A stretch of DNA of 64,000 bases from a virus, in the IMG/VR virus record IMGVR_UViG_3300020185_004330, positions 1-64,000 of that record. The stretch is one strand, 5' to 3'. A model generated the notes under the pieces. The model did no database searches. It saw only the letters and a program-made list of their open reading frames with translations, and was not told the DNA's origin. Position numbers and translations under genes: made by a program. The first letter of the stretch is position 1, and each line of letters begins with the position of its first letter. Positions 34,237 through 38,612 of this stretch are shown one piece after another.

Positions 34237-34881
34237 ATGAAGGATAAAGTAAGAAAATTAAAGTTAAAAAAACTAATACAAGAATATAATTTTTTGCTAA
34301 CTGATGAAAGCTACAAAAAAGAAGTTATTAGCGAAACAAAATCAGATTTTCTTAAAGAAATACATGAAAAAAAAATAGAATTAGGACTAATAGAAAATGA
34401 GCCATTTCAAGAAGTAATACACGAAGAAAATTCTGATGTTAAGGGTGAAAATGTTGAAACAAAAGAAAGTGATGAAGCAAACTTAGAGGATGACTCAAAA
34501 GACCCTAAAGACATCAAAGACAAAGACTTATTAGAAAATAAAGAAAAGTCAAAAAAATCATCTAAGGTAAAAAAGTTATATAGAGAAATTGCAAAAAAAA
34601 CACACCCAGACAAAGCAAAGTCAAACGAACATGTTGACTTGTATAACAGGGCCACATCGGCATATGAAGATAGTGATTTGATATCATTATACATTATTGC
34701 TTCAGAATTAGATATTAACGTAGAGCTGGATGAAGATGATATTCTTAATATAAATGAAACAATAAACCATAAAAGAAAACAGTTACATAACTTAGAAATG
34801 TCTTACCTTTGGCTATGGTATAATGCTAAAACAAAAGAACAAAAAGAAAAGGTTGTAGCTTTGTTTATAAATAAAAACTAA
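34237..34881 (+). CDS. J-domain (DnaJ-like) protein
   Basis: In 214 residues, about 112-165 form a J domain: KLYREIAKKTHPDKAKS carries the invariant His123-Pro124-Asp125 loop, followed by LYNRATSAYEDSDLISLY as helix III. The J domain would stimulate the ATPase of host DnaK. It is internal, not N-terminal: about 110 highly charged residues precede it and a helical tail follows, with no zinc finger. That suggests targeting host DnaK to a specific phage client. It lies eight bases upstream of the AlaRS-like gene, so the pair probably share an mRNA. Confidence 0.8.
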   Translation: MKDKVRKLKLKKLIQEYNFLLTDESYKKEVISETKSDFLKEIHEKKIELGLIENEPFQEVIHEENSDVKGENVETKESDEANLEDDSKDPKDIKDKDLLENKEKSKKSSKVKKLYREIAKKTHPDKAKSNEHVDLYNRATSAYEDSDLISLYIIASELDINVELDEDDILNINETINHKRKQLHNLEMSYLWLWYNAKTKEQKEKVVALFINKN

Positions 34882-34889
34882 AACACAAA

Positions 34890-35732
34890 ATGAAAGACCT
34901 AACAAAAATTTACGAACAATTTTGTAAAACAAAAGGAATACCTTTTAGATTGGATGACAATGTAAAGAGTTATGATGATACCACATTATTTTGCCCAGCA
35001 GGAATGCAGCAATTTAAAGATAGATTCAAAAACCCAGACAACAAAACTGTTGCCAATATACAATCTTGTATTAGACTTAATGACTTAGAAGAAATAGGAG
35101 ACGGAACACATATGTTGCACTTTAAGATGATAGGGCTGTTTTCATTTGGTGAAATCACCATAAATCAAGCTGTAGATTTTTGGGTAGAATTTGTTAGTAA
35201 TATTTTACAAATTAAAATAGATTATGTAACAGTACATCCTGACAAGTTTGATGAATGGAAATGGTTATATGAAATATATAAAATACCCGTTAAATTAGAT
35301 GATGAATGCATATGGTCAGATGGCGAGATGGGTGGATATTGCACTGAGTTTTATCATAATGAAGTAGAAATAGGAAACATTGTCAATACAATGGATAAAT
35401 ATATTGATGTTGGATTTGGATATTCTAGACTTGACGCAATTATAAATGGAAATAAAAATTTAAGCAAAAATGATATACTTAAAGATGCAATAATTAAAAT
35501 AATTGATTCAGGATTCAAGCCTGGTCCACAGAAGCAAGGGTATGTTCTAAGAAAATTACTTAGACAACTATATGTCGGAGGAGGCTCTGTTAACCATCCT
35601 TTCTTTAAAAAAGAAATAGAAAGACAAGAAAAGGCTAAAGTTAGATATGACAAATTAAAAGAAAAGCACTCTGACAAACCTAAAGAATGGTGGTTTGATA
35701 CTCATGGCATTAACTTGGATGAAATGGATTAA
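34890..35732 (+). CDS. Alanyl-tRNA synthetase catalytic-core-like protein
   Basis: The 280 residues match the AlaRS aminoacylation core in order: DDTTLFCPAGMQQFKDRF (29-46; AlaRS DPTLLFTNAGM.QFK), IRLNDLEEIG then FKMIGLFSFGE (motif 2 region), CIWSDGEMGGYCTEFYHN (140-157; GPCGPCTEI region), EIGNIV with Asn163, DVGFGYSRL (173-181, motif 3 with Arg180), and QGYVLRKLLRQL (216-227). The tRNA-recognition helices beyond this and the whole editing and C-Ala domains are absent. The AlaRS motif 2 Arg appears replaced (THMLHF against RHHTFF), the GGKH loop is missing, and motif 3 Glu is Ser179. It may be a non-tRNA adenylating enzyme or an inactive paralogue. Confidence 0.85.
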   Translation: MKDLTKIYEQFCKTKGIPFRLDDNVKSYDDTTLFCPAGMQQFKDRFKNPDNKTVANIQSCIRLNDLEEIGDGTHMLHFKMIGLFSFGEITINQAVDFWVEFVSNILQIKIDYVTVHPDKFDEWKWLYEIYKIPVKLDDECIWSDGEMGGYCTEFYHNEVEIGNIVNTMDKYIDVGFGYSRLDAIINGNKNLSKNDILKDAIIKIIDSGFKPGPQKQGYVLRKLLRQLYVGGGSVNHPFFKKEIERQEKAKVRYDKLKEKHSDKPKEWWFDTHGINLDEMD

Positions 35733-35855: not shown

Positions 35856-38612
35856 TTATTCACCATCAAAAACTTGCTCTGGTGATTTTTCGCGCAGTTC
35901 AACTAATTCTGTAGAAACTGCTGAGAATTCTATAACAGAACCTTCAGCTCCATAATTAGCGGACTTTGCACTCAACCTTTCTTCAGATTCGATTGTTCCA
36001 CCTTCGATTACTCCCATTCTTGCTTCAACAGCATGAGCTATAACTCTAGCACCAAGATTAACCAGTTCTAAAGCTTCATTAAGAAATGTAAACTCTAGTC
36101 CAGGCGTTTTTCCAGCATCAATATAATCTTCACCTGCTTTCATCAATAAACCATTAACAAAAATTTGTTCTGTATCTTGTGTTATTGCTCTAGGGAAAAA
36201 TAACGTACCTTCTTCTACACTAACATCTTTTCTCGTCATAAAGTTCGTAGCTTGAAACTTAAGTGCTTCGTTAGTAGCAACAATCGCCTCAGCAATAGAA
36301 TCTACAGCAGACTCATCTGAATTAGACAGTAAATTAGCAACAGCTTCATGTAAAGCCTTCTCTTCAGAGCTAGCTCTCTTAATTTCAGCATCTAAACCTA
36401 TTTGTAATTCAGCATCAGCAGCCTTATAAGCTTCAGTCATAGCAGCGTCATCAGCAGCTTGCTTAGCAACTTGTGCAGCTAAACCTTCAGTTAAGACTTT
36501 TTCAGCAGCTTCAGCTCTTGATTTCTCAGTAGCGATTGCATCACCAGCAGCTTTTTCGTTTTGGTCAACGTCAGCTTGTAATGCAGATAAAGTTGTATTA
36601 ACAGCAACAGCTAAATCACTATCAGCCTCTTGAAAAGCATTAACGATTTCAGTTAATGAATCGAGAGCAGCTGGGTCCATGTTTGACAACATGTTGTCAA
36701 CTCTAACACCTAAAGCAGATTCAGCAGCTTCAGCTCTTGATTTCTCAGTAGCGATTGCATCACCAGCAGCTTTTTCGTTTTGGTCAACGTCAGCTTGTAA
36801 AGCAGCGATAGCAGCTTCTCTGTCAAGCTTTTCAGAAGCATCAGCAGCTTTGTAAGCAGCGTCCATAGCAGCTTCATCAGCAGCTTGTTTAGCAACTTGT
36901 GCAGCTAAACCTTCAGTTAATACTTCATCAGCAGCTTCATAAGCAACTTTTGCAGCAGCATCAGCAGCTTTATAAGCAGCATCCATAGCAGCATCAGCAG
37001 CTTCAGAAGCTTCTTTGTTAGCAGAAACATTTGATGTAATCGCACCTTCAGCAGCTCTTGCAGTTACAGCTTCAGCAGAAATAGCAGCAGCATTTGCAGC
37101 TTCAGCAGCTCTTGCAGTTGCAGCTTCAGCAGAAATAGCAGCAGCATTTGCAGCTTCAGCAGCTTCAGCTCTTTCTTGTTCAGCAGCATTTGCAGCTTCA
37201 GCAGCAGCTTTATCAGCAGCAGCAGTAGCTATAATAGCAGCATCAGCAGCTTCATAAGCAACTTTTGCAGCAGCATCAGCAGCTTTATAAGCAGCATCCA
37301 TAGCAGCAACATCGTCAGTTAAGACTTTTTCAGCAGCTCTTGCAGTTACAGCTTCAGCAGAAATAGCATCAGCATTTGCTTTTTCAGCAGCTTCAGCTCT
37401 TGCAGTTTCAGCAACTAAGTTCTCACTACCAGCAATATCAGCAGCAGCTCTTATAGCAGATTCAGCATCTAAGTTAGCCTGAACAGCATCATCACCAGCA
37501 GCTCTATCTATAAGCTCTTGAGCAAGTGCATCATTAGTAGCTTTATCAGCAGCTTCAGAAGCAGCTTGATTAGCGTCTACATCATTTTGAATAGCAGCTT
37601 CAGCAGCTCTTGCAGTTGCAGCTTCAGAAACATCAGCAGCTTCAGAAGCAGCATTATCAGCAGCTTGTTTAGAAGCTAGCGTAGATACAGCAGCATCGTT
37701 AGAAAGAACGTAACCAGCAAATGCAGTATCGTTCGCAGTATCAACAGAGTTGATTAATGCAACGATTTCATGAAATTCGTCAGCATCAGCAGTTGAAGAT
37801 TCTAATATAGCGTCAATTCTTGATTTCTGAGTTTCAATAGCAGTTTCAGCAGCAGCTTGATTAGCGTTTACATCATTTTGAATAACAGCATCAGCAGCAA
37901 TTCTTGCAGCTTCCTCAAGAGATACAGAATTTTGAATAACAGCTTCAGCAGCTAAAGCTCTAGCTTCTTCAGCAGAAATAGCAGCAGCATTTGCTTGTTC
38001 AGCAGCTTGAGCTCTATTGCTTTCAGCAATATCACCAGCTTCAGAAGCAGCTTTTTGAGTAGCAGCAGCAGTAATAATGTCAGCAATCTCTACATCATGA
38101 GCCGCATCAGCAGTTTGTCTGTTTGTAGCTTCTTGTTGAATTGCAGCAGCATTTGCAGCTTCAGCAGCTTCAGCTCTAAGCTTTTCAGCAGCATCAGCAG
38201 CAGCATTTGCATCTTCAGCAGCAGTAGCTCTTGTAGTTTCAGCTAGCAAAGCAGCTTCAATAGCAGCCTTATTGGCGTCCATTTCAACTTGTTGAGCAGC
38301 GTCATCAGCAACTTGCTTAGATGATTGTGCATCTAATTCAGCTTTAAGCTGCTTATCGTCAGCTTGAGCAGCAGCTTTATTACTGTCTACATCATTTTGA
38401 ATAGCTTCCCTTTCAGAAGCGCTAAACTTACTCTCTTGAGCTTGCTTATCATTGATACTTTGAATAGCATCATCTAATTGCGCGATGTCACCAGTTACTA
38501 AACCGACAGGGCTTAAAATCTCAGCGCCAGTTAAAATAAGGTCAGACTGTCTGTTTAAAACAATCCTAGTTCCACCTGTAGTAGAACCTGAAAATAATAA
38601 AAATAAATCCAT
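35856..38612 (-). CDS. Ala-rich long coiled-coil tail fibre-like protein
   Basis: This is a 918-residue protein. The N-terminal 50 residues (VLNRQSDLILTGAEILSPVG) look like a virion attachment segment. About residues 60-790 are almost uninterrupted Ala/Glu/Asp helix with repeats such as AEAANAAAISAEAATARAAE and AAMDAAYKAADAAAKVAYEA, an extended coiled coil. The C-terminal 125 residues are beta-rich with EQIFVNGLLMKAGEDYIDAG, a fibre-type NGLxxxxGxDY module also seen at 40072. The base composition is richer in GC than its surroundings because of GCA/GCT codons, and identical DNA blocks recur. A long trimeric fibre or whisker is the likely role. Confidence 0.75.
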   Translation of the reverse strand: MDLFLLFSGSTTGGTRIVLNRQSDLILTGAEILSPVGLVTGDIAQLDDAIQSINDKQAQESKFSASEREAIQNDVDSNKAAAQADDKQLKAELDAQSSKQVADDAAQQVEMDANKAAIEAALLAETTRATAAEDANAAADAAEKLRAEAAEAANAAAIQQEATNRQTADAAHDVEIADIITAAATQKAASEAGDIAESNRAQAAEQANAAAISAEEARALAAEAVIQNSVSLEEAARIAADAVIQNDVNANQAAAETAIETQKSRIDAILESSTADADEFHEIVALINSVDTANDTAFAGYVLSNDAAVSTLASKQAADNAASEAADVSEAATARAAEAAIQNDVDANQAASEAADKATNDALAQELIDRAAGDDAVQANLDAESAIRAAADIAGSENLVAETARAEAAEKANADAISAEAVTARAAEKVLTDDVAAMDAAYKAADAAAKVAYEAADAAIIATAAADKAAAEAANAAEQERAEAAEAANAAAISAEAATARAAEAANAAAISAEAVTARAAEGAITSNVSANKEASEAADAAMDAAYKAADAAAKVAYEAADEVLTEGLAAQVAKQAADEAAMDAAYKAADASEKLDREAAIAALQADVDQNEKAAGDAIATEKSRAEAAESALGVRVDNMLSNMDPAALDSLTEIVNAFQEADSDLAVAVNTTLSALQADVDQNEKAAGDAIATEKSRAEAAEKVLTEGLAAQVAKQAADDAAMTEAYKAADAELQIGLDAEIKRASSEEKALHEAVANLLSNSDESAVDSIAEAIVATNEALKFQATNFMTRKDVSVEEGTLFFPRAITQDTEQIFVNGLLMKAGEDYIDAGKTPGLEFTFLNEALELVNLGARVIAHAVEARMGVIEGGTIESEERLSAKSANYGAEGSVIEFSAVSTELVELREKSPEQVFDGE
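36501..36581. repeat. 81-bp direct repeat, copy 1
   Basis: This block is identical to 36720-36800, 219 bases (73 codons) away, inside the coiled-coil fibre gene. Confidence 0.9.
36720..36800. repeat. 81-bp direct repeat, copy 2
   Basis: Identical to 36501-36581. The spacing keeps the reading frame, so recombination between copies would shorten or lengthen the fibre by 73 residues. Confidence 0.9.
36926..36993. repeat. 68-bp direct repeat, copy 1
   Basis: Identical to 37241-37308, 315 bases (105 codons) away in the same gene. Confidence 0.9.
37241..37308. repeat. 68-bp direct repeat, copy 2
   Basis: Identical to 36926-36993, again at an in-frame distance. Confidence 0.9.

What the first reader, a model, noticed from the sequence alone, without database searches (positions are those of the whole stretch)
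34890..35732. Free-standing alanyl-tRNA synthetase catalytic core with altered active-site residues
The 280-residue protein follows AlaRS from the DPTLLFTNAGM region through motif 3 to the GYVLRR helix, but has no editing domain or C-Ala. The AlaRS motif 2 Arg (RHHTFF) is THMLHF here, the GGKH loop is deleted and motif 3 Glu is Ser, while Asp173, Asn163 and Arg180 are kept. Truncated synthetase paralogues often gain new roles such as amino-acid adenylation for tRNA-dependent or tRNA-independent ligation. A phage AlaRS-core paralogue in a structural module is unexpected.
Basis: partly seen in the sequence, partly recalled or inferred. Interest (0 to 1): 0.8.

Follow-up and report, generated by a model that had tools for sequence, protein, structure and literature searches.

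The report
Stripped-down alanyl-tRNA synthetase of phages
This virus of bacteria carries a very small but apparently intact version of the enzyme that loads alanine onto its transfer RNA, and in its relatives the same gene can be read only if the ribosome slips one base backwards at an alanine codon, which looks like a built-in sensor of alanine shortage.

Summary
The ORF at 34890-35732 (280 aa) is real, conserved and AlaRS-related. Also kept are motif 3 Arg, the alanine-binding Asp and Asn, and the pocket Trp. Really altered: the GGKH loop is deleted and RHH is THM/SHL family-wide; motif 3 Glu is Ser only in the window and its two closest relatives. The protein runs on to the DTYGFP motif (D400). 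AlphaFold (pLDDT 92.5) matches AlaRS fragments. The window's genome encodes tRNA-Ala(UGC) with G3:U70. Best reading: a working mini-AlaRS, the smallest I know of, not a repurposed enzyme. Activity is untested.

The surprise lies in relatives. In 16 phage or MAG loci and in Rhizobium plasmids, the AlaRS frame lacks a usable start. Translation begins at a Shine-Dalgarno-ATG leader (M-x-x-L/R-D/N-Ala, then stop) that needs a -1 frameshift at an Ala codon; three divergent members have a selected hairpin downstream. This suggests autoregulation by alanyl-tRNA supply; the standard review knew no natural example. The window gene itself starts at a plain ATG.

The parts
34890..35732 (+). mini-AlaRS CDS, 280 aa: catalytic core plus shortened tRNA-recognition domain; plain ATG start
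35073..35075 (+). codon of R62, the class II motif 2 Arg (E. coli AlaRS R69); invariant 28/28
35106..35111 (+). codons T73-H74 in the RHH position of AlaRS: Arg is Thr/Ser (once Lys) family-wide, first His is invariant
35313..35315 (+). codon of W142 (E. coli Trp 171 counting Met1), alanine pocket; invariant 28/28
35376..35378 (+). codon of N163, alanine-binding Asn (E. coli Asn 213 counting Met1); invariant 28/28
35406..35408 (+). codon of D173, alanine-binding Asp (E. coli D235); invariant 28/28
35424..35429 (+). codons S179-R180: motif 3; Arg invariant 28/28, Glu to Ser only in the window's clade (3/28)
35526..35528 (+). codon of P213, at the position of E. coli N303 (G3:U70 reader); Pro also stands here in the active Tupanvirus enzyme
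   Evidence: PMC10036535
35697..35702 (+). codons D270-T271 (E. coli D400-T401, G3:U70 reader) in the C-terminal motif WWFDTHGI

Best explanation
The gene encodes a minimal but working alanyl-tRNA synthetase that a large phage carries to keep alanyl-tRNA available during infection. It activates alanine with ATP in a standard class II site and charges acceptor stems that carry G3:U70, on host tRNA-Ala and on the phage's own tRNA-Ala(UGC), relying on the acceptor stem alone (no editing domain, no C-Ala). Shown: homology, fold model, kept residues, purifying selection, G3:U70 tRNA-Ala genes in the same genomes. Inferred: catalysis, tRNA specificity and the purpose. In many relatives the gene is preceded by a conserved leader that requires a -1 ribosomal frameshift at an Asp/Asn-Ala codon pair; I infer that this makes expression rise when alanyl-tRNA is scarce. 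The window's clade has lost or never had this leader and uses a plain ATG.
For: AlphaFold model pLDDT 92.5 matches AlaRS catalytic fragments at TM 0.76-0.79, E 1e-15. R62, D65, H74, W142, N163, D173 and R180 are invariant in 28 family members and E. coli. G3:U70 contact D270 is kept in 20/28. Own genome: tRNA-Ala(UGC) with G3:U70. tRNA-Ala is present in 10 of 14 contigs fetched whole, all with G3:U70 where the acceptor is normal. Homologues lie in tRNA arrays; in the 634-kb phage LR745206 a mini-GlyRS, the mini-AlaRS, tRNA-Gly, tRNA-Ala and Thg1 lie together. Precedent: the 461-aa Tupanvirus mini-AlaRS with P/T at the N303/D400 positions still charges G3:U70 tRNA (PMC10036535). The adjacent gene 35856-38612 is 29% Ala and holds 21% of the genome's Ala codons.
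Against: The motif 2 loop lysine (E. coli K73, GGKH) and the RHH arginine are gone in the whole family, so ATP handling may differ. Motif 3 Glu is Ser in this clade. N303 is Pro here. 4 of 14 contigs show no tRNA-Ala (one is 232 kb), and I ran no control for how common tRNA-Ala is in similar phages. No activity data.
Confidence: 0.7

Rival explanations
1. Repurposed adenylating enzyme: an AlaRS core that activates alanine or another amino acid for a target other than tRNA.
For: GGKH loop and RHH Arg lost family-wide, small size, motif 3 Glu to Ser in the window clade.
Against: The acceptor-reading C-terminal part incl. D400-T401 is among the best conserved pieces; tRNA-array location and G3:U70 tRNA-Ala; alanine-pocket residues intact.
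Confidence: 0.15
2. Non-catalytic tRNA-Ala binder (decoy, chaperone or regulator) that keeps the fold but not activity.
For: Loss of the K73 loop lysine, which contributes to adenylate formation in E. coli AlaRS (established knowledge).
Against: ATP and alanine ligands are invariant 28/28, which a binder would not need.
Confidence: 0.1
3. For the relatives: no frameshift; the leader is an upstream ORF and AlaRS starts by termination-reinitiation at an unusual codon (e.g. CTG overlapping TGA).
For: In Rhizobium, L064, L170 and L173 the leader ends NTGA, with CTG or TTG in the AlaRS frame; RefSeq picks CTG in some plasmids.
Against: In L004, L058, L060, L062, L067, L109 and L160 no such codon exists at the leader stop, although leader and register are the same. 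Hairpins 5 nt downstream are under selection in L004, L061, L154 (0/500 synonymous shuffles as stable).
Confidence: 0.2
4. The leader of the relatives is a constitutive -1 frameshift site that does not sense alanyl-tRNA.
For: The same leader precedes a second, unrelated ~110-aa family in phage tRNA arrays, which is not an AlaRS.
Against: The shift is confined to RAC-GCN by the stop position (0-7 codons later), the codon is always Ala with a free third base (GCA/GCC/GCT), and the leader-bearing genes whose function is known are AlaRS.
Confidence: 0.4

Closest known systems
Canonical bacterial AlaRS (TIGR00344, PF01411; E. coli alaS)
   Same: Class II fold, motif 1/2/3 core, alanine and ATP ligands, D400-type acceptor contact
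   Different: 280 vs about 876 aa; no editing domain, no C-Ala, tRNA-recognition domain shortened, GGKH loop deleted, RHH Arg lost; tree branch to canonical AlaRS very long
Tupanvirus mini-AlaRS (TuAlaRS, 461 aa; PMC10036535)
   Same: Viral, catalytic plus tRNA-recognition domains only; Pro at the N303 position as in the window protein
   Different: 461 vs 280 aa; related to its amoeba host's AlaRS by its authors' tree; no frameshift leader reported in what I read
aaRS genes of huge phages (Al-Shayeb et al. 2020, PMC7162821)
   Same: Phage-encoded synthetases together with tRNAs; up to 15 per genome
   Different: The passages I read do not mention a minimal AlaRS or a recoding leader; supplements not read
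prfB (RF2) programmed frameshift, and laboratory hungry-codon or tRNASer3-on-GCA frameshifting (PMC5009743, PMC12202706)
   Same: Feedback logic; -1 shift at GCA Ala codons is known in vitro for tRNASer3 (compare relatives of the window gene)
   Different: RF2 is +1 at a stop codon; no natural trans-frame product specific to starvation is known to the 2016 review. The window gene itself lacks the leader

Membership tests
Alanyl-tRNA synthetase (catalytic core) | Class II fold like AlaRS catalytic fragments | tested here: met
Alanyl-tRNA synthetase (catalytic core) | Class-defining motif 2 Arg and motif 3 Arg | tested here: met
   R62, R180 28/28
Alanyl-tRNA synthetase (catalytic core) | Alanine-pocket Asp, Asn, Trp | tested here: met
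   D173, N163, W142 28/28
Alanyl-tRNA synthetase (catalytic core) | Motif 2 loop GGKH lysine | tested here: not met
   deleted 28/28
Alanyl-tRNA synthetase (catalytic core) | G3:U70 readers N303 and D400 | tested here: inconclusive
   D270 kept, N303 is P213 in the window; the Tupanvirus enzyme lacks both and still works
Alanyl-tRNA synthetase (full length, TIGR00344 equivalog) | Whole-protein score above 457 bits; editing domain and C-Ala | tested here: not met
   79 bits; domains absent
Alanyl-tRNA synthetase (catalytic core) | Alanine activation and tRNA-Ala charging | not testable with these tools
   needs bench work
Mini-AlaRS (catalytic plus acceptor-recognition only) | No editing or C-Ala domain, acceptor-reading part kept, cognate tRNA with G3:U70 in the same genome | tested here: met
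Programmed -1 frameshift (relatives only) | Start in another frame with Shine-Dalgarno in most; no start in the product frame; conserved shift site | tested here: met
Programmed -1 frameshift (relatives only) | Downstream stimulatory structure | tested here: inconclusive
   strong in L004, L061, L154 and L170; weaker in L109; absent in others
Programmed -1 frameshift (relatives only) | Measured frameshift product | not testable with these tools
   needs reporter or mass spectrometry
Programmed -1 frameshift (window gene) | Leader upstream of the gene | tested here: not met
   plain in-frame ATG

The most novel reading that the evidence does not exclude
The phage and plasmid mini-AlaRS family is a backup alanyl-tRNA synthetase switched on by the shortage it cures: when alanyl-tRNA runs low, ribosomes stall on the Ala codon of a short leader, slip -1 (peptidyl-tRNA RAC to RRA, or doublet reading of GC by tRNASer3) and enter the AlaRS frame. 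This would be a natural regulatory use of hungry-codon frameshifting. The window's clade would be a constitutive offshoot.
Probability: 0.4. Interest if true: 0.92.

Novelty: new variant of a known kind. Interest (0 to 1): 0.7.

Why it matters
It gives a 280-residue AlaRS, which would set a new lower bound for a working synthetase of this class and shows how little is needed to read G3:U70. The family's leader offers a natural, conserved candidate for frameshifting controlled by aminoacyl-tRNA supply, testable in well-studied Rhizobium strains (p42b of R. etli CFN 42, pRL9 of R. johnstonii 3841). Frameshifting under amino-acid starvation has been studied in the laboratory for decades, and the 2016 review knew no natural trans-frame product specific to it.

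Tried and rejected
Motif 2 Arg loss: rejected on alignment. Fragment or sequencing error: rejected (dozens of contigs, same ends). Own-genome mini-GlyRS partner: none in the window genome or in G001-G003. GlyRS leader with a frameshift: rejected, mini-GlyRS genes have normal ATG starts. AlaRS specificity of the leader: first supported in a 1.71-Mb scan (5 of 5), then limited by pattern scans that found a second family. Function of that second family: no convincing hit in Pfam, PHROGs or PDB, by sequence or fold. Isolated phages with the gene: none found beyond the metagenomic LR745206. Prior papers on AlaRS frameshifting: none found.

Full report
OBSERVATION. The ORF 34890-35732 (+) encodes 280 aa. 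It matches Pfam PF01411 (E 9e-22, above the gathering score) and AlaRS chains in the PDB. Aligned with E. coli AlaRS and 27 relatives, the true class II motif 2 arginine (CVR in E. coli) is R62 and never varies. Real changes are the deletion of GGKH and RHH to T/S-H in the family (one member has Lys), and motif 3 Glu to Ser in 3 of 28. The C-terminus reaches the DTYGFP motif of AlaRS with D400-T401. Against L073 dN is 0.09 and dS about 2.3.

WHAT IT IS. AlphaFold2 on 40 relatives gives pLDDT 92.5. Foldseek puts AlaRS catalytic fragments first (TM 0.76-0.79 over the query); among viral models only two giant-virus AlaRS proteins of 464 and 513 aa match well. Relatives: 55 and 65 loci in two IMG/VR scans, largely overlapping, six bacterial contigs, the 634-kb phage LR745206, and about 90 plasmid records, nearly all Rhizobium. 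Three of the four bacterial genomes checked also hold a full-length AlaRS.

tRNA CONTEXT. In LR745206 a 246-aa mini-GlyRS, the mini-AlaRS, tRNA-Gly(GCC), tRNA-Ala(UGC) and a Thg1 gene lie together. Several other loci lie inside tRNA arrays with tRNA-Ala. The window's genome (88 kb) carries tRNA-Ala(UGC) at 76902-76976 (-), beyond the window, with G3:U70. Of 14 contigs fetched whole, 10 have tRNA-Ala; every one with a normal acceptor stem has G3:U70, and the exceptions are 88-nt genes called Ala(AGC) that are probably mis-named. The gene next to the mini-AlaRS (35856-38612, -) is 29% alanine and holds 21% of the genome's Ala codons in predicted ORFs, mostly GCT, so a high demand for alanyl-tRNA is plausible in this phage. 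That link is inference from one genome.

HOW IT LIKELY WORKS. Alanine activation by a standard site, then charging of G3:U70 acceptor stems without C-Ala. The Tupanvirus mini-AlaRS is a direct precedent: 461 aa, Pro at the N303 position, specific for G3:U70, rescues yeast (PMC10036535). The missing GGKH lysine and RHH arginine are the main reasons for doubt.

THE LEADER IN RELATIVES. In 16 loci (L004, L058, L060-L062, L064-L067, L075, L109, L154, L160, L168, L170, L173) the AlaRS frame lacks a plausible start, and an ATG or GTG, in most loci behind a Shine-Dalgarno sequence, opens another frame with the peptide M-x-x-(L/R)-(D/N)-Ala or a shorter or longer form of it, then a stop after 0-7 codons. 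The bases ACGC at the site are invariant. Rhizobium plasmids show AAGGAGGTTGCCT-ATG-(T/A)CA-NNG-CGG-GAC-GCC-TGA before the gene, and RefSeq starts there are inconsistent: CTG, ATC, TTG, ATG. Only a -1 shift (or +2) at the RAC-GCN pair joins leader and enzyme in all of them. [quoted passage not shown] I located sites by GGA-CGC or AAA-CGC, so this count is biased. Hairpins starting about 5 nt downstream are far more stable than synonymous shuffles in L004, L061 and L154 (0/500); structure is also unusual in L170 (1/500) and L109 (10/500) at other spacings, but not in the other nine. tRNASer3 reads GC of GCA as a doublet and shifts -1 (PMC12202706), which would give the same frame. The 2016 review states that no natural trans-frame product specific to starvation is known (PMC5009743).

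TESTS OF THE LEADER. A scan of 1.71 Mb of phage contigs for leader plus a -1 ORF of 100 codons gave five hits, all mini-AlaRS. Pattern scans of IMG/VR gave 23 stretches: mini-AlaRS genes in the -1 frame, three of them (L281, L282, L301) very divergent and found by the leader alone; nine members of a second, unknown family in the same -1 frame; one other ORF (L289); two truncated copies (L288, L292); two chance matches. So the leader is portable and not exclusive to AlaRS, which lowers my confidence that it senses alanyl-tRNA. A quick tree places leader-bearing genes on the deepest branches, with plain-ATG groups including the window nested among them, but its support is weak and starred branches force only one change.

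LIMITS. No activity data; no control for tRNA-Ala frequency; tree rooted on a very long branch; most contigs are fragments; prior work on the leader was searched only in the open-access library.

Noticed in passing
L004 near 12000, L058, L060, L061, L062, L064, L065, L066, L067, L075, L109, L154, L160, L168, L170, L173 (about 100 nt before the CP[AS]GM codons): Conserved leader with Shine-Dalgarno, ATG/GTG, Asp/Asn-Ala and early stop; the mini-AlaRS follows in the -1 frame without a start of its own.
   Followed up: yes
L268-L279 (Rhizobium plasmids incl. p42b, pRL9): The same leader (MSPRDA*, MTPRDA*) before a plasmid mini-AlaRS that RefSeq calls alanine--tRNA ligase-related protein, with inconsistent annotated starts.
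   Followed up: yes
L290, L295-L300, L302, L303 (alignment A6): The same leader precedes, in the -1 frame, an unknown ~105-130 aa family (KFxRMxExYR...HWWLD), mostly in phage tRNA arrays; no sequence or fold match.
   Followed up: partly
L004:11220-11960 and L078-L103: Free-standing 240-330 aa glycyl-tRNA synthetase-like cores in huge phages, with normal ATG starts; two contigs (L058/L078, L070/L093) carry both mini-GlyRS and mini-AlaRS.
   Followed up: partly
L004:13400-14239: Thg1-like tRNA guanylyltransferase (Pfam E 3e-29) next to mini-GlyRS, mini-AlaRS, tRNA-Gly and tRNA-Ala.
   Followed up: no
window 35856-38612 (-): 918-aa protein with 29% alanine convergent with the mini-AlaRS; 21% of all Ala codons of the 88-kb genome, mostly GCT.
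   Followed up: partly
window 34237-34881 (+): Protein with an HPD-type J-domain-like stretch (KKTHPDK, read by eye) directly upstream; also directly upstream of the homologue in L003, and a few genes upstream in L001.
   Followed up: no
L070:5713-6924: Mini-AlaRS inside a 404-codon open frame, perhaps fused to an N-terminal domain.
   Followed up: no
L072 (G016:156697-157528): Mini-AlaRS reading frame interrupted; two pieces overlap in different frames.
   Followed up: no
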